DNA of 33,790 bases. Origin: Pelagophyceae sp. CCMP2097 (taxonomy: Eukaryota; Sar; Pelagophyceae). The DNA is taken from NCBI GenBank assembly GCA_026770575.1, contig MU657240.1, positions 25,226-59,015 of the forward strand, in the 5' to 3' direction. Below, in pieces: positions 1,241 through 32,700 of this stretch; position 1 is the first letter of the stretch; the number at the start of each line of letters is the position of its first letter. A program made the translations under genes and the position numbers. The notes under the pieces were generated by a model that worked only from the letters and a program-made list of their open reading frames with translations, had not been told where the DNA came from and ran no database searches.

Positions 1241-4200
1241 TTAGATGACAATCACGGGCGGTACCGGGACGCGAATGTGCCGCGATGTGGCTCCCGGCAC
1301 GGTGGGTTTAAAGGGTGCAAGGTTGCCGTACGGCTTCGGAATGCCAAGGCCCGCCGCGGCGTCCGGAATGTACGCGTTCGGACGCGGCTCCGCAGTCGTC
1401 CGTACCTACGCGCGGCCGTCTCCGTGCTGCTTGTACCCGCGAGGAAACGCACCGTGCCCGGGGCGTCTGGCTGCGCTTGCGGCGCCGCTTGCAAACCGCG
1501 CGGCTGCGATCGTTCCAAAAGCCGCCGCTCGAGCTCGCGAGCCGCGTCTTCCGTCGGCGCCGCGTCCTGGGCCGCGTGCCATTTGGCCTCCTCGAGGCGT
1601 GTCGTCACCTAAACCTCGAGTGATCAACGACTGAAATAACATATATTCGGTGCCTCGTCTTCAAAATAACATCCGTCGTCTTCAAAATAACATCAGTCTC
1701 GTCTTCAAAAAATAAGATCCGTCCAAACTTCAAAAAATAACATCCGTCCAACTTCAAAAGCCGTCCAAACTTCAAAAAATAACATCCGTCCAAAAAATAA
1801 CATCCGTCCAAACTTTCGGCGCCGCGGCGGACGTCGCGCTTCTGCTGCTGCAGCTTCATCGCCGTCGCCTACGCCAAAGTCGAAAAAGCGCAAGGCAAAG
1901 CCCACCGGCGCGCTCCTGGCAAACGAGGCTTCCAAGGCAGACCTTCCAGAGATGCGAGGGGTATTGTTGAGATCTCGTTCATCGAAAGCTCCGAAACCAC
2001 GCACCTGGTACATGGACAGCTCCGAGACCACGGCCATCATGCGCCGCGTCGCGTCGCGGATCTTCGCCTGAAGGATTTTTGGATTTTTGGATTTTTGGAT
2101 TTTTGGATCTTTGGAAAGGGGCCTCGTCTCAAGGGCGCCCCCCAAATTCGTGGCCGTTGGAACGGACCTGATATCCGTTGACCTGCCTGGCCAAGTCGAG
2201 CGTCTCGCCGCGACCGGATGCCGCGCGGTGCTGCAATTTCGCGGCGAGGTTGGCGACTTCCTCCAGGACGAGCTCGTTCTCCAGCAAGGCCTCCTTTTTG
2301 GCCTAGATGCGTGCCCTCTCGGAAAGTTTAAAAATTAAAAAAATTAAAATTAAAATCGAAAACGCACGTTCAACCGCTCCTCCAACACGGCCGTCTTGGC
2401 CGCCAGCGCGTCTCTATCGGCGTCGTCGCCCGGCAAGGTGCGCCACCTCGTCAAATTCGCCGGCGACTCCAAATCCGAGCACAGCTGCTCCGTCGACGCC
2501 CTCGCTAAACGAAGTTCCGCCTAAAGGGGGCGCGTCGGGCGTCGACGGCGAACCTGTTCGTCTTGCTTGCTTGACTTCAAATGCGGTTCAAATGCACTTT
2601 ACAATCCACCACTTCAAATGCAGTTCAAATGACCCAAACGCACTTTACAGTCCACCACTGCTTTGGCCAGCAGCGGCAGCTGCGGCAGCTGCTTGCGGGC
2701 CACTGCCACGTGCCGCTGCACCTCGGCCAGCTTGAGGCGCAAAGCGCGCGCGTCCTCGGTGCGCTGGCGCACGCCAACGTCGCCGGATTTTATGGTGAAC
2801 TCTTGCAAGTTGACCTAATTTCAGTTCCAAATTTTTCAATTCCAATTCCAAATTTTTCAATTTATTTTGGGGCGGGTCGGGACCGTTGCGAGGGCTGCTC
2901 GAGGGCCGTCGAGGAGGGCCGACTCGAGGACCGACTCGAGGACCGTCTCGAGGACCGTCTCGAGGACTGTCTGCAGAACCGTCTCGATGCCGTCTCGAAA
3001 ACTGTCTCGAGAACCGTCTCGAGGACCGTCTCGAGGACCGTCTGAAGGTCGTTTTGAGACCGTCTCGGTGCCGTCAAAGGGGGCCGTCAAGAGGGCCGTC
3101 GGGAGACCATCTCGAAGACAGCCAATAGGGCCGTCGAGAGGCCGCCTCGAAGACCGTCTCGAGGACCGTCTCCAAGCCGCCTCGGGGGTCGTCTCGAGGG
3201 CCATTTTCAAAGCCGTCTTCAGGGCCGTCTCGAGGACCGTCTTGAAGGCCGTCTTCAGGGCCGTCTGAATGGCCGTCTTCAGGGCCGTCTTCAGGACCGC
3301 TTCGATGCCGTCTCCGAGCCGTCTCGAGGGCCGTATAGGGGCCGTCTCGAAGGCCGTCAAGAGGACCGTCTCGAGGTTCGTCTTCAGGACCGTCTCAGGG
3401 CTGTCAAGAGGGCCGTCTCGAGGGCCGTCTCGGGGCCGTATCAAGGGCCGTCTCGAGGGCCGTCTCGAGCTCGTCTCGTTGACCGTCTCGACGACCGTGT
3501 TAAGGTTGTTTTGAGGCCGTCTCGATACCGTCAAAGAGGGCCGTAGGGAGACCATCTCGAAGACCGTCTCGAGGGCCGTCTCGAGGGCCGTCTCGAGGGC
3601 CGTCTCTGGGATCGACTCGAGGGCTGTCTTCAAAGCTGTCTGAAGAGCCGTCTCGGGGACCGTCTCGAGGGCTGTCTTCAAAGCTGTCTGAAGGGCCGTC
3701 TCGAGGACCGTCTTCGGGACGGCCTCAAGTACGTTTTGAGGCCGTCGAGAGCATCGTCTCGAGGGCCGTCTTCCGGGTTTCGACATGGTCTCCGAGCCGT
3801 CTCGAGGGCCGCATAGGGGCCGTCTCGAGGGCCGTCAAGAGGGCCGTCTCGAAGGCCGTTCCAAAGGCCGTTCCAAAGGCCGTCTCGAACTTTATCTCGG
3901 GGTCATTTCGGGGCCGTCTCGAGGGCCGTCTCGGCGACCGTCTCGGCGACCGTCTCGAGGACCGTCTCGAGGACCGTCTCGAGGACCGTCTCGAAGCCGT
4001 CTTGAGGGCCGCCCAGAAGGCCGCCCAAGAGGCCCGTCCGTCGTTCCCCCCGCCATTCCCCCGCACCTTTTCGTAGAGGATGCAGAGCTCGTCGTTGCGG
4101 TCGATGAGGTTGATTCCAGTGCCGTTGCGCTGTTCAACGGCCTAATAATCATCATCCCGAATCACATCGCAGGGCGGCCCGTCCCCGAGGACCGGCGTCG

Positions 4201-12589: not shown

Positions 12590-12920
12590 AACCACTTCAT
12601 TGCAACCTCGAGATACCGCGACAGGCGACACCCTCCCCACGGCCGATGGCGCGCATATCATTAATGTTTGAGGTCGGGGCGCCGGCATCGGCGGTGGATC
12701 GAGGGTGCTCGGAGTCCGCACTTGCGTGGATCGGTGCGCAGTCGGGGTTGTGGAGGAGGGCGGGCGTGGGGCTCGTTGGCAGGGCGGGCGGCGGAGCTCG
12801 TTTGCGGCAGCCGGCAAAGTGGCGCGGCCACGCTCGAATAGGGGATTCGGAGGCTCTTCGAGCGTCGTTATGGACGCGATCGGGTGGCGATGGCTCGGTG
12901 CGTTGACGCGGTCGTTCGGC
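12590..12920 (+). repeat. Dispersed repeat, copy 1 (partner at 25390-25735)
   Basis: It shares long blocks with 25390-25735 in the same orientation, for example GTGGATCGAGGGTGCTCGGA, GGCTCTTCGAGCGTCGTT and GTGGTCGTTCGGCG-like sequence. The edges are fuzzy. Both copies can be read in a plus frame containing FGGSSSVV, so it may be a decayed coding repeat. No terminal repeats were identified. Confidence 0.75.
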
Positions 12921-13028
12921 GTTTCTCGCGTTCTGCGTGGGTGTTTCTCTGGATTCGTTCGTGTTCGGGGGGCTCGTTCAGGGGTTGTTGGGAGGCCCGT
13001 CGGTCGGCGGGCGCGTACCTCGGAGGGC

Positions 13029-13316
13029 GGGCGGGCGGGCGTAGTCCGCGATGGAAGGGGGTGAAAGATTCGTCGTCGGAGCCGGCACAGTCGACAATGG
13101 TTCCCGGATTTTGCTCTGGTGTCAGAACTCGAGATGGAACTCGAATGACCGGGTGGTCGGAAGGGCGGGCGGGGGGGGGGGGGGGCGGGCGGGCGTAGTC
13201 CGCGATGGAAGGGGGTGAAAGATTCGTCGTCGGAGCCGGCACAGTCGACAATGGTTCCCGGATTTTGCTCTGGTGTCAGAACTCGAGATGGAACTCGAAT
13301 GACCGGGTGGTCGGAA
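13029..13316. repeat. 154-bp direct tandem duplication with a poly-G tract
   Basis: About 130 bp from GGGCGTAGTCCGCGATGG to GGGTGGTCGGAA occur twice at an offset of 154 bp (13029-13162 and 13183-13316) and look essentially identical. A G-run of about 15 bases lies between them. The near identity suggests a recent event or an assembly artefact. Confidence 0.9.
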
Positions 13317-13515
13317 TGTGCTTCGTCTTGGACTGGTCCTCCTCCTCCTTCAGGCGTGGGTGCGGTACCACCAGATCCACTGGCCCTACAGTCGTTTGAC
13401 GGTCCAACACTCCGACACTTTGACGCGTCTCAAAAAGGTTCACGTAAAGACGCCGCGATTGAATGTACGTCTTCGCGCGCGGCCGCGTCCGGCTTGACGA
13501 GCCTATCGGATTGAC

Positions 13516-16500
13516 TCAAGGCGAGCGCTCTTCAAGAAGAGACAACGATCTCAGCTCGACCACTGAGCTCTCTGTCGAAAGATTCGCGCGAAAGACGGTC
13601 GACGCCGCGGCGTGCCCGCGCGCGGCGAGCCAGCGGTTCCAGCGCCGGATCGCGCGGAGCTCGCCGAGCAGCATCGGGTCCGGCACCAGCTCGTCGGCGC
13701 CGGCCGCGGCCTCGGGGAGCGGCGCCGATCGCTCGATCTTTGTGTGCATCCCGCCCCACGGCTTCTTCCGGCCGCTCTGCTGGCGCAGGTAGTCGACGGC
13801 GACGAAGAACTCGTCGTCGAAGCGCTTCTCGGGCAGCGAGTCCTTGAGCGACTTGCCTACAGACGTCGTCAGGCGTGATTTGACTTTTCCGAGTCCCCGT
13901 AATGTGTCGAGTCTTGAAGAGACTCGTTTGAGGACGCTGCCGGGCACGGAGCGCCTCGACGCCTATCGAGGTTGATCTCAAACGAATCGAAAACTCCGGC
14001 TATTCACGAACACGTTTTGCAGGACGCCGGATGCGGACCGGAGACGTATAGCGGCGGCAGCGGCTTCTTGGCCGCGGCGCGCTTCTGGTTCATCTTGTCA
14101 AAGGCGGCGACGACTTTGATCATGACCGCGCTACGAAAGGAGGATCAGACGTTTGAGCGTCGTTCGAGCAGCAGTGGTCTCACCGCTTGCCGGCGCCGTG
14201 GAACTTGAACGCGGCCAGCGACGGGCAAATGTTGTAGAAGCGCTTCGTCTTCGTAGCCTTGCCGACGAGCATCGTCGCGCAGTTGTACATCGCGGCGGCC
14301 TGCGTCGGCGAGGATGGGGCGTCGAGTGGACGTTGTGAGATGTGCTTGGGAAAGTCGGCTCTCGAACATCGACTCTCGACTCGACGACAAAACGAAGAGC
14401 TTGCAGGACGCCGCGCGCGTGCCTCGACTTCCGTCTCGCAAAAGCCGAGCTTGAATGCGCCGCGGAATGCGCGGCTTGTGCCCGGAATGGACAGTTCCGC
14501 CACAAAGCGCCCCTCGACGCATTGGACGCCGAAGAAGCGGTCCTGCGCACAACACAAGAATCATGGATGATCAGAGACGCACACGACGTCGAAGAAGAAG
14601 ACAGAAAACGACAGGCCGGGTCCAAAGAACGCACCATGTCCGTCGCCTCGGCGAACGCGTGCTCGAGCGAGTAGAGGCACTCGAGCGGGTCGCGCGGGAA
14701 GTTGTAGACGTAGTTCGGCTCGAGGCCCTTGGCGACGCGGAGCTCGGCGTGCAGCCGCTCCCGCTCCTCGCGGTGCAGCGCCGTCGCCAGCGCGTCCGGG
14801 CCGAGGTATCCATCGGATCTCCCGACCGACTTGCGGCCTCGCCAGCGCGGGTCGGCCGGTGCGGTGCGCTTCTTGGAGAGGTGGCCGTCCTTGGCGTGGA
14901 ACGTGTAGTAAAAAGTGTTGGATTTCTTTACACTGCTGTTGGTCCGCGCGTGCACCTCGACGCCGTAGAAGCCGTAGAACTCTCTCTGTAGCGCACCGGG
15001 GTACGGCGACGCCATGCACGTCTTGGCGAAGCGCATGTGCTTGAAGAGGCCGTAGCAGAAGCCTAGGATGAAACGCAGGGTCGAAACATAAATGTCACGT
15101 GTGAGAATGCCACCTCCTCCCAAAACAACAAACCACCGCGTTCCCCCGAAGAGAAGACCATCCTCTCTCGACGTGCGTCCTTTCTCGGCCTTCCAATAGT
15201 TTGGGCAGAGGTTGAATCGACGACGCCGTCTTCGGACGCGCCGCGCTGGCGAACTTCTCCAGGTCGTTGATGGACAGGCCGCCGAGCGTGTGCGCGATGA
15301 TCGGGAACTTCTCCATCGCCTTGAGCAAGGCGGGGAGCCGGCGCCTATTTTGTTCTCGTCTTTGCCGCGACCCTCGGACAACGTTTGGAAAAGGCGACTC
15401 CTCGACTCAACCAACGAAAGACACGACTGAGAAGATGATCGATGGTGGACTCTGGCGCGGGATACAGCGCGGCGTGCGCCCAGACGCAGTCGGGCGTGAA
15501 GTCCTCCGAGGGGCACGCAGGCGCCTCCGTGCCCGCGGGAATGCGCGACGGCACCGGCACGAGCGGCTTGAACCTGGCAGTGCACGCGGTTGTGTCAAGA
15601 GGGAGGAGCAATATAATCAAGTAGAGTTCGAAACATGATTGCTTTGGAACCGAAGCGGGGCGAACGTCGGGATCTCCGGCCAGACGCTCCGTCGGCGCGT
15701 GAAGCGCGTCGCGACGGGCAGGCCCTCGCGGAAGTTGACCACGTCCTCCGCCTCGAGCCGCTCGAACTGGTTCACGAGGTCTTCCGTCGCCGCGCTCGTC
15801 GCGCCTATAGAAAAATTGAGATATACGTAAAGGGGACGACCGATGTCACATTTTATTCTACACTCGATTTCTCCACTCGATGTGCGCAAGGACGCAGGTG
15901 GACTTGCACTTCGCGAGCATCCGCGGCCACTTGGCGCGCAGGTGCTTGCTGAGCTCGGCCTGGGTGACCTTGATCGCCTTGAGGCGCCGCCGCAGCTCCT
16001 TCTTGGTCTTCTTGTTCGCGCAGAGCCGTCCAAGCTCAGGCTTGAGCTGCCGCAGCTTGATCATGAGCTACGGACGGGCTGTTTGACGATTATGCCAGGC
16101 AGGGGTCTCTCGACGAAGCAGCGTTCAAAGCTTACCTTGGCCCGGCGTCGAGACCACTTGTCGGCGTAAAAGAGCTGGTTCGCAGGCTGAGCAGGCCTTG
16201 GGATCTTGCTCCTGGTAACCTTACCCGACGAAGAAGTAACTCTGGGCCCATTGGCTGTATGCAAACGCGGCGTCGGCACCTACGCAGGCATTAGCGTTAA
16301 AGACTAGCACAATTCAAACGTCGAAGAAGAAACGTATAGTTCGCACCACGTTCGCCTCGCGCCAGGCCGCGTGCCGCATCGCCGCCTGTGACTTGGAGAT
16401 CCACAAACGACGAAACAGAAGATCAAGAGAAGAAAACGCACCGAGAGGCGCGACAGCCCGTCCTCGTCGAAGCCGTCAGAGCCGTCGGAGTCGACGGCGC

Positions 16501-19500
16501 GCTTGCCGAGCCAGCCGACGATGCGGTCGCGCTGCCCGTCCGCCGGCTTCTCGGCCTCGAGCGAGCGCAGGAAGTGCCGCCGGCGAATGTCGGCGAACGG
16601 GTTCTCCGACGATGCCGCCGTCCGCTCCTGGATGCCCTCGTGCAAAGCGATGCGCCGCGCGAGCTGGTCGTCGTTCAGCTGGCCCACGCAGCCGAGCTTG
16701 CGCAGGTGCTCGCGGTGGCCGTCGAGGCACTTCGTGCGGCGCTCCAGGCCGAGGAGCACAGAGAAGTGGACCTTGGAGCCGTGCTCGGCGCTGCACTCGA
16801 GGCAGTAGAGAACGCGACCGGCCGGGAGGCCGCCGGAAAAGCCGGCGCAGTACGAGTGGCAGTACTTGTCGCAGGACCGGTCCTTCTTCTTGTCCGCATT
16901 GCAGCGGAAGAGCAGCGCCTGCTCGCACGAGTCGTGGCAGACCTCGCAGCGCGGCCGCACTTCAATGGGCTGCGCCTCGACTGGCCGCGCCTTGAGAAAC
17001 CGCTGCACGTGCTCAAACTCGAGCCGCCGCATCCGGTCGTCGCTCCACCGGTTGCGGTTCTTCTTGTCGACCTCGACGGCCGACGCCAAAAGCTCCTCCT
17101 CCAACTCCGCGTGCTTCGACGCCTCGCGCGCCGATTCGTCGGCAGCGTTCGGATGAGCCCGGCGCTCGGCCTCGGCGGCCATGGCGCGCTCGGCGACGGC
17201 CTTGGCGACGCGCGCGTCCATCCAGGCCTCGTAGCGCGGCGCGCGGAGCATGTCGCGGTACAGCTCGAGCCACCGCTTCGCACCCGGCGTGCCCTCGTCG
17301 ATGCGCCGCTTCATGACCTCGTCCATGCGCAGCGACAGCGGCGGCTTAAAAGGCGGCTCGACGAACGCCTCGCTCGAGTACAGGCTCCAGAACGGCCGCA
17401 GCATCTCCTTGAAGTAGTCTGCGTCGGGATCGTAGACGTCGCCCTCCTTGGGCAACGACACGCCCGCGTACCGCAGCCGCGCCGCCATGACTGGGTCGAC
17501 GCGCCGCCCCGTCTCGGGCAGCGGCCGGTACAGCTCCGGCTGCAGCGCCTTGTTCAGGTCGACGCGCACGTGGTGCGGCAGCGCCCACGTCGACTCGTGC
17601 GTGCCAATGTCGCAGAAGTAGTTCTGGTAGTACCGGCCGCTGTAGCACTCGACGAGGTCCCACTTCTTCAAAATGGCCGCGCGCTTCTTCTGCGCCTCGG
17701 TCACCGGCCGGACGATGTGGTCCTCGCGCTCCTCAGTCTGCCGCGCGAGTTTCGGGTTCGCGCGCCGCCAGGCCTCGTGCTCCTCCTGGTAGAACGGCCA
17801 GTTCGGCAAGCCGCACGCGTGCAGTGTCGTCGCACGCACCAGCACCAGGTCCTCAAACTTGAGCAGCGCGTTCGAAGTCCACCACTCCGGGTCAGCCTCT
17901 TCTTGCCGTCGCAGCGCCTCCTTGGCCAGGTCCTTGAGGATGCGGCTCCGCTTGCAGTCGCGGATGAACGCCTCGAGGTTCAGGCCGCCCGGCAGCGCCA
18001 GCGCCACGCGCCGGTTGAGCCGCGGCGCCTCGACCGCCCGAAGCTGCGCCGACGGCTGCGTGGTGGCCGTACGCGGAGAGCTGCTCGTCGCCGCGGTCGG
18101 CAGAGGCCCTCGAGGAACTTTGGCGGCGTCGAGGGGCGCCGCGTACTTGGCCGCAAGGTGTGCCGGTCTCAGGACCTCGAGGGCGCGCTGGAGCTCGGCG
18201 ACTGTCGCAAAGTGCGGCTGCGCGCGGCAGATGAACCAATCGTGGCCCTGCACCGTCTCGCGCGCGAAGCCGAGCGCCGCGAGGACGCACTGCGCCGCCG
18301 GGACATCGAGGTAAGCCTTGACGTTCGGGTTCGACAACTTGAGCCAGCGGTACGTCGGCTCCTCCGGGTACGCGTAGATGCACTTGAGCACCAGGATCAG
18401 CGCCTCACGCGACTGCGACGAGAGCCATTGCAGGCCGAGTGTCGTCGAGACCTATTTTCAATTTTGAGCTTTGGAGGCGTGTTCGACCAAAAGGCACGTT
18501 CACGTACCGCCGGGGCCTGCGGTGCGACGACCGGTGCTGCCTCTAGCGCCACTATCGGTGCAGCGTCGCGAGCAGGTCGCTGCGAGTCGCCTCCCGAACT
18601 GCTCGTCGTCCCTTGCCGCTTCTTCCGTCCGTCTTGCGCGGCCTGCGACCGCTTCTCTTGCCGCGGCGGCTCGGCGTCGGCGTCGTCGCGCTGGTCGTCA
18701 ACGAGCACCAGCGCCAGGCTCGGCTGCGTCTTGGCGGCCTCGTCGCGCGACCTAGAAGTTTCCATTGTGCGGGCCGTCGTCAGTTGTCGGACATTCTCGA
18801 GGGCCCTTTTTAAAAGGCGCCTCTTTTCGACGCTGCGTCGCGCGGCTCGGGTCGCGCGGCGGATCGGGCCGGTCGCGCTGCCGGCGCGTCGACGTGCTGT
18901 TCCGACCTGTGGTGCACATTGTGAAGAAGGGACCACGTGCGGACGACGACGTTCGACTCACGACTGCGTGTCTCGCGTCTCGACGTCGTCCAGCGCCAGC
19001 GAGGCCAGCGGTGGCGGCGACCTATATCTCGTCGGGGTCGCGACAACGACCGTTCCGCCAAACACACATTTCAAACACGGTCAGCTCACCTCGTCGCGTC
19101 GTCGGAGCGGTCGAAGCGCACCAGCTGCGCGTCGTCGAGCTGCGCGTCGTCGAGCAGCACGGCGTCCAGCTGCGCGGCCTCCAACTTCTTCTTCGCCTTT
19201 TTCCGTTTCCTCTTGGCCTCCTTGCGCCATTCCGTTTCGGCGCGCTGCGCGAAAAGCGCCACCTTCCACGCATTCTGCCGGGCCGTGGCGCCGATGAAGC
19301 CGGTGCAGTCGCGGCGGCCGCAGAAGCACGGCGGGAACGAGCCCTCGAACGTCGTGAGGCAGATGGGCTCTTGCGCGTAGTTGAGCGTGAGCCAGGCGCC
19401 GCTCGGGATGTCCTTCGTCGCGACCAAAAAGATGCGCTGCACGCCGTCGATCTCGAACCTATAACGAGTGGTCAGCAGGTTGAGTAGGAAGGACCACGGC

Positions 19501-22500
19501 ATCGTAGGTTCCCAAGGAAGCCGTTGGACACGGAGCGCGCGCCACTCGAGTGTCCTACAGCAGAAAAAGTCAATATGCGGCAAAACGTTCGAGGAAGAAA
19601 TAGGTTCATCGTCAGAGGCATGGACTCTTGGGCGTAGTTCAGCGTGAGCCAGGCGCCGCTCGGGATGTCCTTTGTCGCGACCAGGAAGACGCGCTGCACG
19701 CCGTCAATCTCGAACCTATAAAGAGTGGTCACCAGGTTGAGCAGGGAGCACCACGGCATAGTTGGACACGGAGCGCGCGCCACTCGAGCGTCCTATGCCA
19801 ACCAGAGTCAATGTGCAGCAAAACGTTCGAGGATGGATACTGTTCGTCGTCAGAGACAGGCGCGCTTACGTGTTCGGGTGCGTGCAGGCGTTGTTCGCGA
19901 ACCGCGCCAGCGAGCCCGATTCCTCGGCGTCGATGCACATCTTCTTGCCCTCGAGCCAGACCGTGTAGCGCGTCGGCGGCCGCTTCAGCCGCTCGGCCTC
20001 CGTGACGCACTCGCCCAGGTACTCGACGACGACATCGCCCCGCGTCATGGTGGCCGTCGTCTTCAGGCCGAAGCCCGCGCCCTTCCTGGCCTTGTCGACG
20101 CTCAGCACCGGCCTAAGGTGGCAATGTCGGTCGACGGCGCTCCATAATCACCCCGCCTCTCGCGCTCGACGGCCACGCTTTTGGGCCATGCCCGGCGCCC
20201 CCACGCCTCTGATGCCGCTCCCGACGCGGTCTGTGACGACGGTCCGGGTTTTCCAAGCAGAAATCGCCGACTCTGGTCCCGGCCAGTCCCGCGGCAGCGA
20301 GCCGGCGAACTTCTGGCGCCACCAGCCCGGCTTGTTGCCCGTGATGGCGTCGTCCTAGAGGGAGGGCGATGAAGCTTCGCGCATCGTCCCTTTCCAAGGA
20401 AATATTGTCGAGCCTCTCGTTCGCACGCAGAGCCGCCGCACGGGCGCTCATGTGGAATCCCATGATCACGTATGAGCTCAGAAAGAGGCCATAAGAACCC
20501 ATGGGATTCCGTATGAGCCCTGGGCTGTTTGTTCGGGCGATTTTGTTTCCGTCGACGGGCCGTCTACGGACCGTCGAGGGGTCGCATCGGACCATGCAGA
20601 GGGCGCCTCGGACCTTCTAGGGTGGATATAAAACCGTCGGGGCGCCGAAGAGTGTCTTTGAGCCCACCGTCAGACCGTGGGGGCATGGGACCGTCTAGGG
20701 GATGTTTCCAGACCGTCTATGGACCATCACGAGGGTGCATCGGATATTTTAAAGCCCATAAAAGACCGAATAGGGGCCGTGTAGGACCGTCGAGGTCCAC
20801 GTAGGACCGTGGGGGGTGCGCATGGGACCGTCTCGGGTCATAAAAGGACCGTAGTGGACCGTAGAGGACCGTAAAGGGTCCCAAAAGGACAGCCCGTAGA
20901 GAGATCGTATGGGACCGTCGAGTGGCCACATATAAGACCGTCGAGGGGCCGCATCGGATCGTGGCGTCGCGAATTGTATATCTGACAGAAGTATTTTGGA
21001 GCTTCTCCTCACGACCGTCGCACAAAGGAATCAGTGAAAGGCACTGCGTGCGCGCGGCGGGCCGGTCCATGAGCTCAAAGGGCTCGCCGCCGTCGCGGAG
21101 GTAGCCGCTGTAGGCCTTCGCGGCCTCGCGCAGGTCGTCGTCGGAGCGCTGCGAGAAGAGCAGCGTCGGCTCCTTTGTCGTGCCGTCCGCCTTGGCCTTC
21201 TTGCCGCAGTTGTCGAGCACGACGCGCAGCTGGTCCTTGAACTGCTCCCGGTCGAGCCGGCCGCCCTTGTCGGCGAGGAAGATGCCCATGCCCACCAGGT
21301 TGTTGTCGTCCTCGAAGGCCTTGGTCGCGTAGCTGCGGGAATCGAATGTCGGTGGGCGACGAAGAGGGATCGAAGACGAGCTCGTGGGGCAGGGACCGTC
21401 ACACTCTCCTCTCGTCGAGTCCGATGAATATCTTGAGATGGATGCATCTCTTGCGCTGTCGAAACTTTCGGACGCGGCCGTGAAACCCGAGCGAGGCCTG
21501 GTAGAGCATGCCGAGCCGCGTCGGCTTCGACGAGTCCTTGGTCGCGCAGCGCCGGAGGCCGACGTGCTCCCAGACCTTGACCGCGGCCCGCGTCGCGCTG
21601 AGGACGATGGCCTCGACGCCGAGGCGGCGCCCGAGCGCGATGATCAGGTCGAGCCTATTCCAGGTGTCGGTGAGTGAGGATCGACCGGGAGGTGGGCGAG
21701 GATGAGAGACATGGTCGCCCCCACTCTGCACGCAGTGCCGCTCGCCTCTTTTCGAAAACAGGACAGATTTGTGAAATTGTGCGGATCGGGCGCCGGTGCA
21801 GACTCGAAGTGCAGCAGGCCGTGGCCTCGCGCCTCGGGCATCGTGACGGCCGCGTCGACGTAGAAGATGATCGGGTGCTCCTGCGATGTGCGAAAGGTGC
21901 GAGATGCCGGAAATCGGTCGTCGTCGTCCCGCAAAAACTTCAGAATGCAAAAAGACGCACCTCCCGACAGCTCGACTTTGCCCTTCCACTCGAGCCGCTT
22001 CGGCAGGACGACGGCCTGGAAGACGACGGTCGACAGCTTGTGCAGAACCTAGGCGAGAAAAATGCCGGACGAGTGCGAGAAGAAGCAATGTTGCACTCCG
22101 TCGGCAAACGAGGGTCCCCGTACGCACCAGGGAGAGGAGCAGCTTGAGCTCTTCCGCCGTGCCGTCGATGATCTGCATGATGTGGCTCTCCCAGGTAAAC
22201 GGCGTGGTCGGCAGCGGGCCGTAGTCCTCCTCGTCGTCCTCGTCGCGCCGCGTCCACTCCTCGGGCCACATGAAGCCCTCGGAGAACCAGTCCTTCCAGC
22301 CGTAGCGGAGGATCTCCGCCACCTTTGGGGCTCCGGATGCCGTCAGCTTGCCGTTGAAAACGAACTCGGTGAACATGGCCGCCGTCTGAAGGGAGCCCTT
22401 GAACTTGGAAACGACAAACTCGACGTCCTTGAGCGCCGCGATGAGCTCCGGGTACAGGTTGCGCACGAGGCGCTCGCGCTCGTGGCGCGGCGACGACCGC

Positions 22501-23315
22501 CGCTCGACGAGCGCGTTCCTAGCGGGGAGCGATGGGTCACGTTTCGAGGCGGGGCCGCGTGTTCCAACGACGATGCAATGAAAATCTTCAACGACGACAG
22601 GCCATCTTTCGACTTTCAAAGGCCGCCGACGCGCATGCCACGACGGGGGCTGGGGGCGTTCGTCGGGGGAGGACCTCTCGAGTGGAGCAGAGCGACCACC
22701 GCGCGCCCCCTTTCAAAGGAGAAGAGACGAGTTTCTTCAACGACGGCGGGTCCTTTTTCGACTTTCAGAGGGCGCCGACGCGCGCGCCACGACCGGGACG
22801 GAGGCGTTCACCGGAGAAGGACCGCCCCGAAGAGGCGCACGAGGAGCCCCCGCGACGAGTCGCGGCGCCCCCTTCCAAAGAAGAAGAAACAAGTTTCTTC
22901 AACGACGGCGAGTCACTTTTCGACTTTCAAAGGGCGCCGACGCGCGCGCCACGACCGGAACGGAGGCGTTCACCGGGGAAAGGCCGCCCCGAGGGGGCGC
23001 TCGAGGAGCCCCCCTGACGAGTCGAGGTGCCCCCTTCCGAAGAAGAAGAAACGAGTTTCTTCAACAACGTCGGGTCATTTTTCGACTTTCAAAGGGCGCC
23101 GACGCGCGCGCCACGACGAGGGTTGGGGCGTTCGCTGGGGTAGGACCGTCCCGAGGGGGCGCACGCAAGGCGACTCACGCGATGTCGACGCGGTCCCGAC
23201 GCTTGAGCTTGTCTTTGCGCGCGACCTTCTCTGCGTAGTCAGGATCTGAGCCCGACGAGTGCAGATCGCTGCCGCCTCTTTTCTTATGCGAAGACGCCTT
23301 GTCGCGCCGCCCCAT
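13516..23315 (-). CDS. Composite chromatin protein: GNAT, SET, PUB-like, WW, PHD, HMG, AP2
   Basis: Exons in transcript order: 23179-23315, 22128-22518, 21804-22048, 21487-21654, 20987-21332, 20272-20354, 19870-20112, 19090-19458, 18962-19021, 18508-18751, 16442-18451, 16347-16385, 16136-16279, 15908-16067, 15651-15804, 15451-15573, 15238-15344, 14635-15062, 14429-14542, 14184-14299, 14039-14130, 13516-13856. They sum to 2038 codons. The start ATG (23315) opens MGRRDKASSHKK. Domains: GNAT about 225-345 (VTMPEARGHGLL, then AAVKVWEHVGL); SET about 457-575 (GAGFGL, FANNACTHPNT, LTLNYAQE); post-SET CFCGRRDC about 580-592; PUB-like about 785-860; WW about 1023-1056; PHD about 1264-1314 (CEVC to CLEC); HMG about 1470-1546; AP2 about 1818-1880. 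A tentative FYRN-like stretch surrounds FCYGLFKHMRF. Predicted roles are lysine acetylation and methylation of nuclear protein, with chromatin reading and DNA binding. Weakest point: the join 20987/20354 (donor GTCAGA) is supported only by phase, so GNAT and SET halves could be separate genes. Promoter is divergent from the TBC gene. Confidence 0.75.
14184..14542 (-). other. AP2/ERF DNA-binding domain encoded by two exons
   Basis: Exon 14429-14542 encodes FFGVQCVEGRFVAEL and RAFRGAFKLGFCETE. Exon 14184-14299 continues AAAMYNCATMLVGKA and TKTKRFYN. Joined in phase 0 across an intron with donor GTCGAGG, the order matches the AP2/ERF fold: three strands with a G-x-W/F-V-A-E core, then the alanine-rich helix. 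The YRG-type start is FFGV here. It belongs to the C-terminal part of the composite chromatin gene. Confidence 0.8.
15908..16279 (-). other. Split HMG-box with a lysine/arginine-rich insertion
   Basis: Exon 16136-16279 ends with RSKIPRPAQPANQLFYADKW, a typical HMG-box start. Exon 15908-16067 carries VTQAELSKHLRAKWPRML, a typical helix 2. Between them lie roughly 30 extra basic residues (for example KKTKKELRRRLK) not expected in a canonical box. The intron after 15908 is GC-AG (donor GCAAGT), which is required to keep phase. An atypical or non-specific DNA-binding box is inferred. Confidence 0.65.
16442..18451 (-). other. Large exon encoding PUB-like, WW and PHD domains
   Basis: A 670-codon exon. 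PUB-like: PTYRWLKLSNPNVKAYL followed by CVLAALGFARE, as in PUB domains that bind p97/VCP tails in other proteins. WW: KKWDLVECYSGRYYQN then THESTWALP, with both signature tryptophans and the central aromatics. PHD: CEVCHDSC, CNADKKKDRSCDKYCHSYC and CLEC give zinc-ligand spacing close to a C4HC3 finger. The exon ends GLSRLS before donor GTGCGTTTTC. The 969-aa frame on the opposite strand (16388-19297) is its antisense shadow. Confidence 0.85.
19090..20112 (-). other. SET domain and post-SET motif, with duplicated exon between
   Basis: Exon 19870-20112 encodes the N-terminal SET half: GAGFGLKTTATMTRGDVVVE, then YLGECVTEAE, and FANNACTHPNT in place of the usual NHSC-x-PN. Exon 19090-19458 encodes FEIDGVQRIFLVATKDIPSG, then AWLTLNYAQE, and the post-SET-like CFCGRRDC. 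The tail is very basic (KRKRKKAKKK), possibly a nuclear localisation signal. The reaction inferred is SAM-dependent lysine methylation. The NHSC to NNAC change may affect activity. Confidence 0.85.
19626..19715 (-). other. Extra copy of the SET exon (90 nt, phase 2 to phase 2)
   Basis: A second copy of the FEIDGVQRVFLVATKDIPSG coding segment, flanked by acceptor TTTATAG and a possible donor GAGTCCATG. It is exactly 30 codons between phase-2 boundaries. It could be included as a cassette, or could replace exon 19090-19458 and join the phase-2 acceptor at 19021, which would delete the post-SET motif. The copy lies in a larger duplicated block (about 19371-19625 against 19631-19860). It may equally be a decaying pseudo-exon. 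Confidence 0.75.
20550..20965. repeat. GGACCGT-type repeat array in an intron
   Basis: Degenerate repeats of GGACCGT(C/A)(T/G)AGGG lie in intron 20355-20986 between the GNAT and SET halves of the composite gene. It resembles the 12-bp family but mostly lacks CTCGAG. A short inverted repeat GGAATCCCATG / CATGGGATTCC lies beside it at about 20456-20511. Confidence 0.65.
21487..22048 (-). other. GNAT-type acetyltransferase core (two exons)
   Basis: Exon 21804-22048 encodes PIIFYVDAAVTMPEARGHGL. Exon 21487-21654 continues ALGRRLGVEAIVLSATRAAV, then KVWEHVGL. Together these give GNAT motif A (R-G-x-G acetyl-CoA loop with its helix) and motif B (an aromatic before hVGF/L). The join is phase 2 to phase 2. 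The substrate is unknown; histone or other chromatin protein is inferred from the companion domains. Confidence 0.75.
22565..23165. repeat. 162-bp tandem repeat, about four copies, in first intron
   Basis: The landmark GTTTCTTCAACGACG recurs at 22731, 22893 and 23055, a period of 162 bp, with a more diverged first copy near 22585. Each unit also has TTTCGACTTTCAAAGGGCGC and CGCGCGCCACGA. Since 162 is 54 codons, frames remain open and give false 161- and 395-aa plus-strand frames. It occupies most of intron 22519-23178 of the composite gene. Confidence 0.9.
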
Positions 23316-25389
23316 CGTGTCGAAACGCCTTGCCCCGCTCTCGCCGCGCCGATGCCACGTGCAAACAGGAGCTCCCGACGCTTCGAAGCTGCTGACGAAA
23401 GCGGCGAGATTCTTCAAGATCTGCTTCAAGACCCGGAACATTCCTCAGAATTTGGCGCGGGTTCCGCACGATTCGGCGAAGCTTTTGCATCGAGGCGCCG
23501 AGTGCCAAGCGTCGCGCCCCTCCCGCACACTGAGGGTTGAGTGCGCCCAGCGCCCATGCGACGGCGGGCCAGGGCAACTTGGTCGGCGGTCCCTCCGTGC
23601 TCTCGAGCGCGGTGCAGGAGGCGGCAATTCTTGCCTTTGCTGGAGGGAGGGAGGCGCGCTTTCGCTGCGAGTCGGCTTACGCCGGCCGTGGCGGCTGTGC
23701 GATGCGCGGCCTTCGATTTGATCCACTGTCACAGTGCTCTGATCCGCAGCTACAGAGCGCGCGGCGGAGACGTTTGACCGGGCTTCACGACGGGGCTTGG
23801 ACGGTGCTCTCGCGCCGTGAGCGGACGACGCGGCCCAGGCGACGGACGCGGCGCGGACGGAGCCGCATCATTTTCCCGGAAGGAGGCACCATCTTGCGCC
23901 GCCCGTTTTTGATTCAGGATTGGAGAGAACCGAAAACGACGTTTGATGGTTCTTAGACGGTGCTGTCGTGTCCTGGACGCGCGGCGGGCTGCGACGATTA
24001 CGTGTGCATCGATGGGCTCCTTATTCTTCGAGTTCGAGGTGCATGTGGTGCCGGAGCATCCGCCGGCTCCTGCGATAGAACCATTTTTTTCAGTGCCGCT
24101 GCAAAGGGCTTGTGCTCTTTTTCGCCGCAACCCTCGGGCGCGCCTGCCTCTTTTGCGCCTGTCGCACGTTTTTTCATAGAGGATCGCACCGAGTCGGGAA
24201 CCCACGAGGCCCGCGCACCTTACAAGTTGGTCGTGGGCATCGCGCCGGCCTCCGCAGTACAAGGGGTATCGCTAATGACGCTGAGGACTTTCTGTCCATC
24301 GGAGTTTTCGTCGGTTGGAGTTTGGCCCTGTTGGGAGTCATAGAGGACGTCGCGCTGAGTCCGGCAATGCCATGGCCCAAAAAAATCTTTTGTTAAAAAC
24401 GCCCAAACTAAAAATCAGAACGTCTGTTTTGGCTCGTCTGAAGCGCCACTCGCGGCACTCGTACGGGACAAGTCAAATACCACCCCAGTACGTATGGACC
24501 CGCCCCGTCACATAGCCAGTTTTTTGATCCGGGCGGTCCTGCGATGGACAGCCGGGCCCGAACCTTCGCAATACGGAGGCAAAATCAGTTCAAAATCAAG
24601 GTAAGGAGGCAAATGAAGATTTTATCAAGTCCAAAATATTGGGGAAAACGCTTGTTCACGCCCTTGCAAGGCGCCCTCCTCGAGGCTGATCATGTCACGG
24701 ACACCCCGGGGGGCAGGGAGGCCCATAGCGACCACGCCCACCCCCGCAGGCGGCCTCTGGGAGGCACAAACTTGCGCCCATTGCAGGCTGAGATCGGCTT
24801 TATCGCCGGCCTCCGCAGTGCTCTTGACGGCGAGGATCCCACCCCGGCTCGCAGGGGATTGCAAGCGCAGAGAGGGTCAGACGCTCGCCGCGCCCGCCGA
24901 GCACGAGGGCGGTCTCCAAAGGCCTCTCGAGTACTCCTAAAGTCTAGTACTCGATGGTCGCGCTCCAAATCCTGAACGAGCCCACGGCGGCGACAGAGCA
25001 AGGCGGTCGAGGAGTCCGACCGCGTACGCTGCGCTCCGGGCGAAGCTCGATCCCGAGTCGGCGGCATGTTCCTGTCTAGCACGAGTCAGCGTGCTCCCAT
25101 CGAAGCCCGCGGGCGCGCCCTCGAATGGCAGCAGTGGAGCCCGTCGAGGGCGCGGTCAACGCGGCGCGCACGCTGCAGCGGGTGCCGCTTGCACTTGCTG
25201 CGTCCGACGGCCAACGCGCCAGCTCATCCGGTCGAGACGGCCTCAGGGACGGCGTTCACGCTCCTCGCACACTTTGACGGAAGATCGTTTTCGGAAACGT
25301 CTGACGGCGATGTGCCGGGGTCACTTGCAGGAAGTTTGACACCAGTGTACATACACCTCCGTGCCCGGTTCCTTGGTACTGGGACCGGC

Positions 25390-26719: not shown

Positions 26720-29700
26720 ATGCCCTTCACTCTCACCATCGCCGAGCCGGGCCCGCTCTACGTCCGCCTCAAGTACGACGCCGCGACGGGGCAGGTCCGG
26801 GCGAGGGCCTGCGTCTCCTCGACGGAACACGCCGTCTGGAACCCGAGCGGCCCTGGCGCGGGCGGCCCTCGCATCGGACCCGCACCCCGCACCCCGGGCC
26901 CCGGGCCGCTGCCGGGGCCTCTGCTGGGGCCGCGGGCCCCTGTGCTGCGTCACCGCGAGCCCGAGTCTTTGAGAGGAATCGTCGAGGCTTGCCGCACCAG
27001 GTCAACGACTCGACGGTAGGTGAATAACTACGACTCTACACCTCACGGCGGCCCTGGTCCCGTCGAGGCCTGCGCGAGCGTCCGGGTGGGGGACGCGCTG
27101 CTGAGCGTCGGAGGCGTACCGCTCAAAGGTGTGGAACAGCGCCGCGAACGGGCGACCCGGACCCATCAGAGAGGCGAGACTCGCGCCGAGGGCGAAGCGA
27201 ATCGTCAAGAAGCCGTCTTTGCGCGCTGGAAGGACGTCCCCGCACTTCGATTTACGGCGCACTGACGCCGCGCCTCTAGGCCTGGGGTTCCAAGCGAGCA
27301 TCCGTTGCGCGCCGCGTCGGCGAGCGGCCAATTATCAACGGACGGAGCGTCGCAGAGTGTCGCCGAGGCGTATACCGTGGCCGTAGCCTAGACCTCTGGG
27401 CAGCCAGGCGCCATCGTGATCGTGGGATGTTGGATTCATACATCGGATCCCGTATGAGGTGCCATGTGGGCTCGTGGGTGAGACCGTTTCGCGGGCAAAC
27501 CCCTCGATGGGCCAGAGCCTGGAGGCATGGCCAGAGAACCTTGGAAACCCGGGTCCTCGCAAGGCGCGCCGCCCTCGCAAGGACTCCGACGAGGCCCTTG
27601 CAAGGCGCCTCGAAAAGGGCCCTCGCGCGGTCTTTTCATCCTCTGCGTCTCGGTGGCCTCTTCGACGGCTCCTCGTGCTTTCGAAAAAGGCACCTCGTGC
27701 TTTTGGGCAGGCCTTGAAGCGCGGTTCCTTGCGAGGCCCCTCGAAAAGGGTCCTTGCACGAGGCCTCTGGACGGTCCGTTGCGAGACGCTCACCCATAGG
27801 CGTCATCAAGCAGTCTGCGCATCCGCGAATCTTGGTCTTCGAGCGCGCCTCGACTTCGGACGAGCCGCCACGGCGGGACGCGCCCGACGTTTTGGGCCAG
27901 CTGCGGTCGACGGCGCTCAAGCTCGGCGGCATCAAAGCACCGCGCGAGGCGCCCGTCTCCGCCGCTTTTGACCGCGCGGCAATCTTGCGCGCCCTCGACT
28001 CGTCCGATGTCATCGACGAGGCGACACTGCGCGCGTTTTCCAGCGCGGGCCTGCCGCGATCGGGCGGCACGCGGCCGCTGGTGAGTCTTACAAGAGAGCC
28101 ATCCAAAAGGAGCGAAAGACGGCTCCGTGAAAACGTTCCCGCAAAGACCACACATGCTAGGTCTGGCGCCTCTTACTTCGTTATTTACCTCTCGTGCGGT
28201 GCGAGTGGTGCGGCCACGTGGATGCGCAGCGGGCGCTGTATTCGCAGTTTCTGAGCGAGTTCCAAATGGACGAGGTGAGGTATTTTGATGGTATTTTGCG
28301 GCATTTCCCTGGTATTTCCCTGGTATTATCTGGTATTTAATGGCATCGTGGGGCGATCGACCAGGGCGCGGCCTTGAGAGGGCCAACGAGGCCACCTTGG
28401 TGAGGGTCCGAGGAGACGGCCCTCGAGACGACGGTTTTGTAGACGGTGACGGTCCGAAGAGACTGCCCTTGCGACGGTTTTGTAGACTGCCCTTGCGACG
28501 GTTTTGTAGACGGCCCTCGAGGCGGCCCTCGAGGCGGCCCTCGAGGCGGCCCTCGAGACGGCCCTCGAAGCGGCCCTGAGACGATGATCACGACGGCCCT
28601 TGAGACGACCCCGAGGCAGTCTCGAATCGGTCCTTGGGACGTCCTCTCGACGCCGTCGAGACGGTGCCGAGACGGCCTCGCGGCTGTCCTCGAAAAGGCC
28701 CCATGATGGCCTCTCGGCGGCCTCTTGATGACCTCTTGATGACCTCATCGGGTCTGAAAAATGTGATCGAAATGTCTAACGGTCTTCGAGACGGGTCTTC
28801 GAGACGGGCCTTCGACGGCCTTGAGACGGCGTCGAGACGGGCCAGAAGATGGTCCTCGACACGGACCCAAGGCGGCTTCGAAACGGTCCTCGAAACGGTC
28901 CTCGAGCCGGTCCTCGAGACGGCATCGACGGTCCTCGAGACGGTCCTCACGACGGTCCTCGCGACTGTCCTCGCGACTGTCCTCGCGATGGCCCTCGAGG
29001 CCGCCCTCGAAACGTTCTCCGAGACGGCCTCTCGACGGTCCCAAGACCCCCTCGAGACGGTCCTTGTGACGGTCCTCGTGATGGCCTCCAAGATGGCTTC
29101 GAGACACTCCCAGGACGATCCTCGAGACGGCCCTCGAGACGGTCCCACGACGGCCCCCACGGCGGTCATTAAGACGGCCCTCGGTCTCAAGACGGCCTCA
29201 CGACAGTCCTCGAGACAGCCCTCGAAACGGTCCTCGAGACGGCCCCTGTACGGGGCCCTCTGGACGGGTTGTACGACGGCCCCGAGGCGAAGTCCGTGGC
29301 CACCTCGGACCGTCTCGAGACGGTCTCGGAGACGGTCCTCGAGAGGGTCCTTCAGACGGCCTTTGAGACGGTCTCAAGACGACGCTCGAGACGACGCTCG
29401 AAACGGTCCTTCAAACGGCCCTCTCGATGGCCTCGGTCTTGAAAACCGGCTCTGGACGGCCCTCTGCATCGCCTGGAAGGGCGACGTCTGAACCCCGAGA
29501 CGGTCCCCTTTGACGGCCCCAAAGACGACCCAAAGGTCTCAAGACGGCCTCGAGACGGTCTTCAGACAGCCCTCGAGGCGGTTCCGTCGAGCATCTCCTC
29601 AAGGCGGTCCTCGAGGCGGCCTCGGCCCTTGACACGGCCTCTGTACGGGGCCCTCTTGACGGGTTGTACGACGGCCCGGAGGAGGGGTCCGAGAGACGGC

Positions 29701-32700
29701 CTCGAGACGGGCCTCGAGACGCCTGCGAGGCAGTCCTGGAGATGGCCCCTTGAGCAGTCCCCGAGAGGGTCCTTCCGACGGCCGCATCGCAAAGAATGGC
29801 GACCAAGTCTTTGAGGGCGGACCGCGGAATCGTAGGAGCAGTCCGAGGGCGGCAGCGGCACCATGTGGGCGCAGCAGCAGCTGGACTCGCAGCTGATCGG
29901 CGAGATCCGCAAAGACGTGCGTGGGAGCGCTGCTCTTTGAAATGCACTGTTTAAATTGACTGACTCTTGAATCAAACCCTCGAGCAATTTGAAAGGGTGG
30001 ATTTTAAGCAAGCAAGGCAGTCGAATCCGTAGGTGATCCGGACGCTGCCGAATTTACAATTTTTCACAGAGGCCGAGGGCCCGCTGCGGCACGCCGCCAT
30101 GGAACGGATCCTATTTGTCTACGCCAAGCTGAACCCGGGCGTGCGCTACGTGCAGGGAATGAACGAGGTGACTCTTTTGCGGCGTGTTGCCAAAAGCGAA
30201 TTCGGAGTGCGCCGCATCGACGCGGAGGCGCCCGGTAGGTGCTCGGCACGATCTTCTTCTGCTTCGCGAGCGACGAATCCGACTGGAAGGCGCACGCCGA
30301 GGCGCGTGCCTGCGGGGCACAGGGAAGCTCCACGCGGGAAAGGGTCCCAGAGGCGCGGGCGAGATTCCAGCCTGGGTTGGGACGGCAGAGATTCCAGCCT
30401 GGGTTGGGACGGCAGAGACTCGACGGACCCTCGACGGCGCTGACGTGGTTCCTCGACGGTCCCGGACGGCCCTCAACGGCCCTCAACGGCGGAACAATTG
30501 TAACCGTAGGCCGACGCCTTCTTCTGCTTCACCGCGCTCATGGCCGAGATGCGCGACGTCGGGAAACAGCGTCTCGTTGTTGTCGCCGATGGGCGGCCGC
30601 CGCGAGGCTTCGCAGCGGCGTGGCTCGGGGCGGCGGCCGGGCTGGGATCGAGTGCAGTACGGCCGCTCGTATGACGATGCTCGAGTTGTCCCCGTCGAAA
30701 GATACTCTGGCCACTGAACCCGTCGAGTATTTCCCCCGTAGGTGTACATGCACTCCCTGGACAACTCCGACTCTGGCATCCACGGCAAGATCGGCCGCCT
30801 AGACGCCATGCTCCAGGCGCGTCGCCTGCGCCGCCTTGTGGTCCTCTGTGCTCGGCAAGCGCCTTGTGGGTCCTCTGTCGGGTTTTCAATTTGTCGTGCT
30901 CGGCAAGCGCCGGCCCCGAGTCAGGAGCAGAGACAGTGTATTCGGGTCGGGTCGAGTCGGGTTGCTCAATTTGTGCCGCACCCAAAGGGTCGCGGGTTTG
31001 TCGAGATACCAAACACGCCTTCCAAGGGTCGGGTTCGGGCCACGGCCAAACCCGCGGGTCGACGGGTCGGCCAAAACGCGCAAACCCGGCAAACCCGACC
31101 TACGGGTTTCGAGCAAACCCAAACCCGCCCTGCTCCTATCTCAGGCTCCTCGAGACGGCCCCTCGAGACGGCCCTTTGAGACGGCCCCTCGAGACGGCCC
31201 TTTGAGGCGGCCCCTCGAGACGGCCCTTTGAGACGGCTACTCGAAACGGCGCCTTGGGACGGCCCTTCGAGACGGTGCCTCGAAACGGCCACTCGAAACG
31301 GCGCCTTGAGACGGCCCCTCGAGAAGCTCGGAAGGTCTCTTTGATGGTCGCTTGAGCGCCCCCTCGGAGAGTTCTTTTGAGCAGTTACTTGGACGGTCCC
31401 TCGACGGGCCCTCTGTGACCGTCGCTTTGACGGTGACCCCTTGACGGTCCCTTGGACGTTCACTCGGCTGCCGGCCCCTCGACTGCGGCCTCTCTGCGAC
31501 GTCCCTGGACGGTCGCTCGGACGGTCGCTCTGACGGGCCCACGGAGTCGCCGCGGGTCTCTTGCAAGGAACCCTGCGTGGGGGCTTGAGAGGGGCCTTGA
31601 AAAAGGCCTGGCAAGTGACCGCGCAGAGGCCTTGCAAGTGGCCGCGAAAGAGGACTTGCAGGGGCCCGTCCGGAGGCAAGGGCCCTTCAAAGAGCCCTTG
31701 CAAGCGACCGCGCAGAGGCCGTGCAAGTGGCAACAAAAAGAGGCCTTGGAGGGGTCCTGAGGACCCTTTGAGGGCCCTTGAAAGAGGCCGCCCGTCGAGG
31801 CCTTGTAAGTGACCGTGCATTCGGCCGGGCAAGTGGCCGCTCAAGAGGCCTTGCAGGGCTGTCGGACACCCGGTGGCGGCGGCAGGAGGCCGCCGCAGGG
31901 ATGGTGTTTTCGGGTTTGCAATTCGTGCCGCACCCAAAGGCTTCGTCGAGCGACCAAAACCCGTCGTCTCGGGTCGGGTTCGGGCCACGGCCAGACGGGC
32001 GGGTCGACGGTTTGGCCTCAACGCGCAAACCCGGGTTTTTCGGGCAACCCAAAACCCGTCGTTGCTCCTGCCCCGAGCCGCGTCCGGCCTTGGAGGCGAG
32101 GCTAGGCGCACGACCCGCAGCTGCACGCGCACCTGCGCGCACATCGTTTAGACCCTGGCTTTTACGCGTTGCGGTGAGGCCGCCGCGTCGGAGGCGCGTC
32201 GGGAAACGCGTCGGCAGACGGAATACGAGTTGACCAGAGGCTGTGACGCCGGGTGTGGCCTTTCGCGGCGCGGGCCTCTGCCGCACACCGACGTGCATTC
32301 TCTGACAGACGGCGCATTTCTGGCCCGAAACGGCCTCTGGCTCGTGAGGCGCGAGGGTTGAATACCCCGTAGGTGGATCACGACGTTGCTGGCGCGCGAA
32401 TTCGACATCGGGGACACGATGAGACTTTGGGACGCGATTCTGGCCAACACGGCGCGCGTCGATTTCCTTCTCCACTTTTCTTTGACAATGCTCCTCGCGC
32501 AGCGCACCGCGCTCCTCGAATCGGATTTTGCGGAATGCTTGCAGCTTTTGCAGTACGGCAAGCAGCGTCGGAGACGCGGTCCCTTTTCCACGGTCCTTTT
32601 TCCAACGGTCCTTTTTCCAAACGGTCCCTTTTCCAACGGTCCTTTTTCCAACGGTCCCTTTTCCACGGTCCTTTCTTTGACAGACGTCGTCTGTTGCCTC

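What the first reader, a model, noticed from the sequence alone, without database searches (positions are those of the whole stretch)
13516..23315. One gene model fuses acetyltransferase, methyltransferase, readers and DNA-binding domains
Twenty-two exons chain into 2038 codons carrying GNAT, SET/post-SET, PUB-like, WW, PHD, HMG-box and AP2 domains. I know of no described protein with this set and order. If it is one polypeptide, it would couple two histone-writing activities with methyl-lysine reading, p97-type binding and sequence-specific DNA binding. The GNAT-to-SET join (20987/20354) is supported only by reading phase.
Basis: partly seen in the sequence, partly recalled or inferred. Interest (0 to 1): 0.88.

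Follow-up and report, generated by a model that had tools for sequence, protein, structure and literature searches.

The report
Clustered chromatin-writer genes, variable tail
The window holds one copy of a long gene that recurs about twenty times in this genome, with most of the copies examined decayed; it carries a histone-methyltransferase (SET) segment beside an acetyltransferase-like segment, likely joined in one protein, and its copies differ most in short stretches near the end that might choose its DNA targets.

Summary
The gene model is largely real but not a one-off. The exon series recurs in this genome: 21 places match the SET piece and 19 of them have the GNAT-like region within 6.5 kb. 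The weak join is SET to PUB (19090-18451), a barely constrained linker. Phase conflicts vanish with GC donors, two of which read GT in sister copy H. GNAT-like and SET exons show dN/dS 0.16-0.35. By profile, SET is firm (NSD/ASH1-like), PUB passes in two sister copies, GNAT is weak (IDM1_C, E 0.0047); WW, PHD, HMG and AP2 are not confirmed. The window copy has an extra G in exon 3 and a duplicated SET exon pair; 8 of 9 other aligned copies carry two or more lesions. One copy lies inside another between perfect 27-base repeats. Exons 21-22 hold hypervariable segments. Expression is untested.

The parts
23179..23315 (-). E1, predicted start exon (ATG at 23315), donor GTGAGT
   Evidence: A-B dN/dS 0.06
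22128..22518 (-). E2, N-terminal region of unknown fold
   Evidence: dN/dS 0.33
21961..22048 (-). E3, start of GNAT-like segment; one extra G at its end in the window copy against 9 of 9 others
   Evidence: dN/dS 0.16
21804..21880 (-). E4, GNAT-like (EHPIIFYVDAAVTMPEARGHGLLHF)
   Evidence: dN/dS 0.24
21487..21654 (-). E5, GNAT-like (LDLIIALGRRLGVEAIVLSATRAAVKVWEHVGLRRC)
   Evidence: IDM1_C E 0.0047 with E3-E4; dN/dS 0.35
21056..21332 (-). E6, after the GNAT-like segment; donor GCGCGC in 10 of 10 copies
   Evidence: dN/dS 0.34
20355..21055 (-). GNAT-SET intron, 701 bases here, 95-96 bases in copies C, E, F, G, J: carries an insertion of about 600 bases
20272..20354 (-). E7, between GNAT-like and SET
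   Evidence: dN/dS 0.29; its donor GTCGGC is conserved
19870..20112 (-). E8, first part of SET (NNAC in place of NHSC)
19626..19792 (-). first copy of the SET exon pair (19792-19781 and 19715-19626, with GC-donor intron); duplicated in the window copy
19090..19554 (-). E9 (19554-19543) and E10 (19458-19090): rest of SET and post-SET cysteines
   Evidence: dN/dS 0.31
18508..19021 (-). E11-E13, linker with uncertain exons: E11 19021-18962, E12 18906-18793, E13 18751-18508; the weak join
   Evidence: dN/dS 2.77, 0.93, 0.70; E11 frame unclear; TAA in the E12 frame
16442..18451 (-). E14, 670 codons: PUB at its start, WW-like and PHD-like stretches further on
   Evidence: PUB; WW-like and PHD-like by eye; open in this copy
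16347..16385 (-). E15, short exon, donor GTGCGA
15908..16279 (-).
15238..15804 (-). E18 (15804-15650, 3' end uncertain by 16 bases), E19 (15573-15468), E20 (15344-15238)
14635..15062 (-). E21, with two hypervariable segments
14423..14542 (-).
14039..14299 (-). E23 (14299-14184) and E24 (14130-14039)
13520..13962 (-). E25 (about 13962-13948, uncertain) and E26 (13856-13520), C-terminal part; exact stop not settled
12600..23970 (-). approximate extent of the repeated unit; both ends vary between copies

Best explanation
The window holds one copy of a clustered family of about twenty long genes whose GNAT-like, SET and PUB exons are likely spliced into a single protein that would modify histones at sites that its hypervariable C-terminal part might choose. 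Shown by sequence: the exon series recurs in order and strand in other copies; GNAT-like and SET parts lie one ordinary intron apart in 5 of 10 aligned copies; these exons are under purifying selection; exons 21 and 22 hold hypervariable segments. Inferred and untested: one transcript from 23315 to about 13520; methylation by the NSD/ASH1-like SET (H3K36 class by kinship); histone acetylation by the GNAT-like part, as in plant IDM1 (recalled); p97-type binding by PUB; target choice by the variable segments. The family likely grows by duplication and by insertion of whole units, most of which then decay.
For: Same order and strand of pieces in other copies; 19 of 21 SET places have the GNAT-like region and 20 of 21 have E14 within 6.5 kb. 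GNAT-SET intron of 95-96 bases in 5 of 10 copies. Donors conserved, with GC to GT exchange in copy H after E17 and E22. After E10 the GT is kept in 9 of 9 copies with that exon while the in-frame TGA is present in 4 of 9, which speaks for splicing rather than a stop. Pooled dN/dS 0.16-0.35 in E3-E6, 0.30 and 0.31 in SET; against copy B 0.00-0.20 in E1-E5 and 0.08-0.13 in SET. SET E 1.8e-13, NSD3 7.3e-16. PUB over cut-off in two copies.
Against: No transcript. Linker E11-E13 is near neutral, E11 has no clear frame, the window copy has a TAA in the E12 frame. The window copy has an extra base in E3. SET's NHSC is NNAC in 10 of 10 copies, so activity is uncertain. GNAT is sub-threshold, without a PDB match and without an IDM1_C match genome-wide. 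No DNA-binding domain was confirmed. In the tail dN does not exceed local dS. E6 and E13-E14 between A and B have dN/dS about 0.6, and pooled PUB 0.78.
Confidence: 0.5

Rival explanations
1. Two neighbouring genes on one strand: a GNAT-SET gene that ends near 19086 and a PUB-to-tail gene that starts in the linker. They are copied together because they are neighbours.
For: Linker E11-E13 is near neutral (dN/dS 2.77, 0.93, 0.70); TGA directly after the E10 donor in 4 of 9 copies; an ATG near 18764 lies in the E14 frame.
Against: The TGA is absent in 5 of 9 copies while the GT is kept in 9 of 9. E13 ends at a conserved donor GTACGT or GTGCGT in 9 of 9, so something is spliced into E14. E13 length changes are multiples of three in E, F, H, J, but not in G and K. 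Only about 640 bases lie between E10 and E14.
Confidence: 0.27
2. The unit is a mobile DNA element and the protein is part of its equipment: it jumps as a block of about 10.7 kb and makes a long target duplication.
For: Copy D lies in an intron of copy C between two perfect 27-base repeats (C77:185630-185656 and 196369-196395). About twenty copies, most examined ones decayed.
Against: Of six copies tested (A, B, D, E, G, H) only D has such a repeat; E has 13 bases. The 6.8-kb interior of D is unsequenced; its 5' part is 98.9% like B, its 3' part 93.1% like A and 87.1% like B, so D may be composite. Unit ends vary, no mobility enzyme was recognised, and 16 of 27 E14 places lie on two contigs, as segmental duplication would give.
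Confidence: 0.2
3. The window copy is a pseudogene, and the finding describes a dead relative of a working gene such as copy B.
For: Extra G in E3 against 9 of 9 copies, duplicated SET exon pair, TAA in the E12 frame; 8 of 9 other aligned copies carry two or more lesions.
Against: Its E14 is the only match over all 670 codons without a stop in the list (B has an unsequenced stretch there). No other stop or frameshift in its constrained exons. A-B dN/dS is low in E1-E5 and SET. The extra G could be an assembly error.
Confidence: 0.4

Closest known systems
NSD/ASH1L-type SET methyltransferases
   Same: SET and post-SET align end to end, E 7.3e-16 to NSD3 and 3.4e-15 to ASH1L
   Different: NHSC is NNAC; no pre-SET/AWS domain appeared in the Pfam scan; fused with GNAT-like and PUB parts
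Plant IDM1-type acetyltransferases (PHD plus GNAT)
   Same: Best Pfam hit of the GNAT-like exons is IDM1_C (E 0.0047)
   Different: Below the curated cut-off; PHD not confirmed; SET is absent from IDM1 (recalled)
PUB-domain proteins (peptide N-glycanase, HOIP; recalled)
   Same: PUB profile passed in two sister copies
   Different: Rest of the chain unrelated; the window's PUB found no PDB match
PRDM9 and KRAB zinc-finger clusters (works like, not member)
   Same: Chromatin-modifying body with a fast-changing part; a multi-copy clustered family as for KRAB genes (recalled). PRDM9 deposits H3K4me3 and H3K36me3 (abstract of PMC12828234, seen in the listing)
   Different: No zinc fingers seen; DNA binding of the variable segments not shown; dN does not exceed local dS

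Membership tests
SET domain (PF00856) | profile match over the curated cut-off | tested here: met
   51.3 bits, cut-off 22.4, E 1.8e-13
SET domain (PF00856) | NHSC motif for cofactor binding (recalled) | tested here: not met
   NNAC in 10 of 10 copies; the later tyrosine of LTLNY or LALNY is kept where the exon aligns
SET domain (PF00856) | methyltransferase activity | not testable with these tools
   needs expressed protein
GNAT acetyltransferase | profile match over the curated cut-off | tested here: not met
   IDM1_C 17.5 bits, cut-off 33; no PDB match; no IDM1_C match genome-wide
PUB domain (PF09409) | profile match over the curated cut-off | tested here: met
   met in two sister copies (37.1, 34.4 bits against 34.3); the window copy reaches 29.1
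WW domain (PF00397) | profile match | tested here: not met
   no family place at E<=1; best PDB hit PRPF40A E 0.21
PHD finger | profile match | tested here: not met
   Pfam gives only C1-like_CT E 0.24; in the PDB a BAZ2B zinc-finger chain E 4.3 behind unrelated hits; Cys/His spacing by eye only; no genome-wide PHD search
HMG box (PF00505) | profile match | tested here: not met
   none for joined E16-E17 of copy B or in any family place
AP2 domain (PF00847) | profile match | tested here: not met
   none for joined E22-E23 of three copies, none in the PDB with an 8-row profile, none in family places
mobile DNA element | target-site duplication and fixed ends in more than one copy | tested here: inconclusive
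   27 bases around D; none of 14 or more in A, B, E, G, H; F, J, K, C, I not tested
PRDM9-like target-diversifying writer | DNA-contact residues under positive selection | tested here: inconclusive
   variable segments have dN 0.43-0.52 and dS 0.52-0.84, ratio 0.58-0.84; contact residues unknown

The most novel reading that the evidence does not exclude
A self-spreading, clustered family of dual histone writers, acetyl- and methyltransferase in one chain, whose DNA-reading tail diversifies from copy to copy: a protist counterpart of PRDM9 or of KRAB zinc-finger clusters, built from unrelated parts.
Probability: 0.13. Interest if true: 0.88.

Novelty: new variant of a known kind. Interest (0 to 1): 0.58.

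Why it matters
I know of no described protein with GNAT-like, SET and PUB parts in one chain; my two protein searches and paper searches (listings only) showed none, but the protein searches scored no SET protein either and are therefore weak. If expressed, the gene would put two histone-writing activities in one chain. If its tail reads DNA, it would be an independent case of chromatin writers that diversify their targets. The comparison also shows how decayed copies can settle a gene model, GC donors included, without transcripts.

Tried and rejected
Rejected: the GNAT-SET gap as a gene boundary (intron of 95-96 bases in 5 of 10 copies); the donor at 20986; frame conflicts as signs of many lesions in the window copy (GC donors resolve those after E9, E17 and E22; the one at E3 remains); a viral origin as a lead (no relative of E14 in viral contigs).

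Led nowhere: AlphaFold2 on single exons without an alignment (mean pLDDT 35.4 for E21; 36.8 for E14), so no fold search was run; protein searches (no hit at E<=0.001); NCBIfam; Pfam on E18-E20 and E26. One search used wrong frames for E11-E13 and E20 and is replaced; only the intron distance (0.20) is taken from it. The gene finder was trained with two exons off frame and served only as a guide. I wrote the contrast tested after seeing the data. The lineage of the genome was not determined.

Dropped before counts: of about 24 family places I fetched 12 and aligned 10; D (unsequenced interior) and M (internal deletion, N run) were not aligned. C and I were left out of the tail counts. In the 27 E14 places, C1 (40% identity, a PUB gene of the host), C239 and C27 are not full copies. 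For one search I left out three rows (C174, C87, C47; 30-36% identity, other SET genes) and short rows inside places already listed.

Full report
What is there. The window is C77:25226-59015 of an unnamed 66-Mb eukaryotic assembly in 638 contigs. On the minus strand an ATG at 23315 opens a chain of exons that runs to about 13520. Pfam finds SET (E 1.8e-13) and a sub-threshold PUB; the GNAT-like exons match only IDM1_C, weakly. PDB comparison places SET with NSD3 and ASH1L, through the post-SET cysteines.

The gene is a family. tblastn of the model's pieces against stretches fetched around similar SET matches found the pieces in the same order and strand in other copies. Genome-wide, the 670-codon exon E14 has 27 places, three of which are a host PUB gene or fragments; the SET piece has 21 places and the GNAT-like region 22. 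Of the 21 SET places 19 have the GNAT-like region within 6.5 kb and 20 have E14. The two SET places without it are C459, which has an N run in front, and C27, a 60%-identical relative. Of the 27 E14 places 11 lie on C20 and 5 on C77.

The joins. I aligned ten copies. GT or GC donors and AG acceptors are shared at most junctions, with exceptions in single copies. Several junctions need GC donors: GCGCGC after E6 in 10 of 10 copies; GC after E9 in 10 of 10; GC after E17 in 8 of 9 and after E22 in 7 of 8 copies with that exon, GT in copy H both times; conversely copy K has GC after E3 where 9 others have GT. The GNAT-SET intron is 95-96 bases in copies C, E, F, G and J and 701-883 in A, B, H, I and K, by insertion. 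The weak join is the linker 19090-18451: its splice sites are conserved but its sequence is near neutral, and E11 has no clear frame. In favour of continuity, GT after E10 is kept in 9 of 9 copies while the TGA it overlaps is there in only 4 of 9.

Constraint and decay. Pooled dN/dS over all pairs of ten copies is 0.16-0.35 in E3-E6, 0.30 and 0.31 in SET, 0.32-0.53 in E14 outside PUB, 0.78 in PUB and 0.49 overall. Between the window copy and copy B it is 0.00-0.20 in E1-E5, 0.08 and 0.13 in SET, but 0.61 in E6 and in the sequenced half of E14. Copies C, E, F, G, H, I, J and K carry two or more stops or frameshifts in the exons counted, and C and I are interrupted or truncated as well; B shows none outside an unsequenced stretch of E14; the window copy has one extra G in E3, a duplicated SET exon pair and a TAA in the uncertain E12 frame. 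SET's NHSC motif reads NNAC in 10 of 10 copies, so that change predates the copies.

The tail. E21 and E22 hold short segments in which nearly every copy differs, set in a conserved frame. Over 8 copies dN there is 0.43-0.52 and dS 0.52-0.84, against 0.06 and 0.12 in the rest of E21 and an intron distance of 0.20. E16 is also raised (0.34 and 0.47). Between the window copy and B, E21-E22 have 52 nonsynonymous to 25 synonymous changes, E1-E10 27 to 48 (Fisher p 1.7e-4); but E13-E14 have 23 to 13, so the shift is not special to the tail. dN does not exceed local dS, so positive selection is not shown; exchange of old cassettes or misalignment remain possible. By eye E22-E23 resemble an AP2 domain, but no profile test agrees.

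Movement. Copy D sits within an intron of copy C, between two identical 27-base stretches of C at C77:185630-185656 and 196369-196395. That is the mark of an insertion with target duplication. It is the only one of six copies tested with such a repeat. D's interior is unsequenced, and its two ends resemble different copies. No mobility enzyme was recognised. A mobile element is therefore a serious rival, not a conclusion.

Reading. I take it as a lineage-specific family of predicted chromatin writers that duplicates, decays and varies in its tail. What it works like: PRDM9 and KRAB zinc-finger clusters; PMC6116924, PMC12828234 and PMC4592553 were seen only as listing and start of abstract. It is not filed as a member of those families. 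Two searches of the paper library, listings only, showed no such architecture; search 82 on GC-AG introns in haptophytes gave no answer on lineage.

Noticed in passing
window 22703-23165: A 162-base unit repeated about 2.9 times fills intron 1; intron 1 differs in length between copies.
   Followed up: partly
window 13025-13316: A 154-base unit repeated 1.9 times at 99% near the 3' end of the repeated unit.
   Followed up: no
window 2880-4011 and 28779-29242: Long arrays of degenerate 12-base units (GGACCGTCTCGA and ACGGTCCTCGAG types).
   Followed up: no
window 30033-30443 (+): An open frame with a stretch (ILFVYAKLNPGVRYVQGMNEV) that looks like a TBC/RabGAP domain, by eye and recall only.
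   Followed up: no
G000:C27:374361-375371 (-): A divergent relative: SET piece 60% identical, a short E14 piece 86% identical, no GNAT-like region found nearby.
   Followed up: no
G000:C1:324500-324775 (-): A PUB domain over the cut-off (54.9 bits) that is 40% identical to the family's PUB: a candidate host source of that part.
   Followed up: no
G000:C87:82968-83234 (L003): A SET match in a frame reported as 17,920 codons with one TAA: a very long gene, or an effect of unsequenced bases.
   Followed up: no
L025:1190-5265, copy K: About 4.3 kb inserted in E13 of copy K.
   Followed up: no
window 20355-21055: Insertion of about 600 bases in the GNAT-SET intron of copies A, B, H, I and K, absent in C, E, F, G and J; its nature was not studied.
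   Followed up: partly
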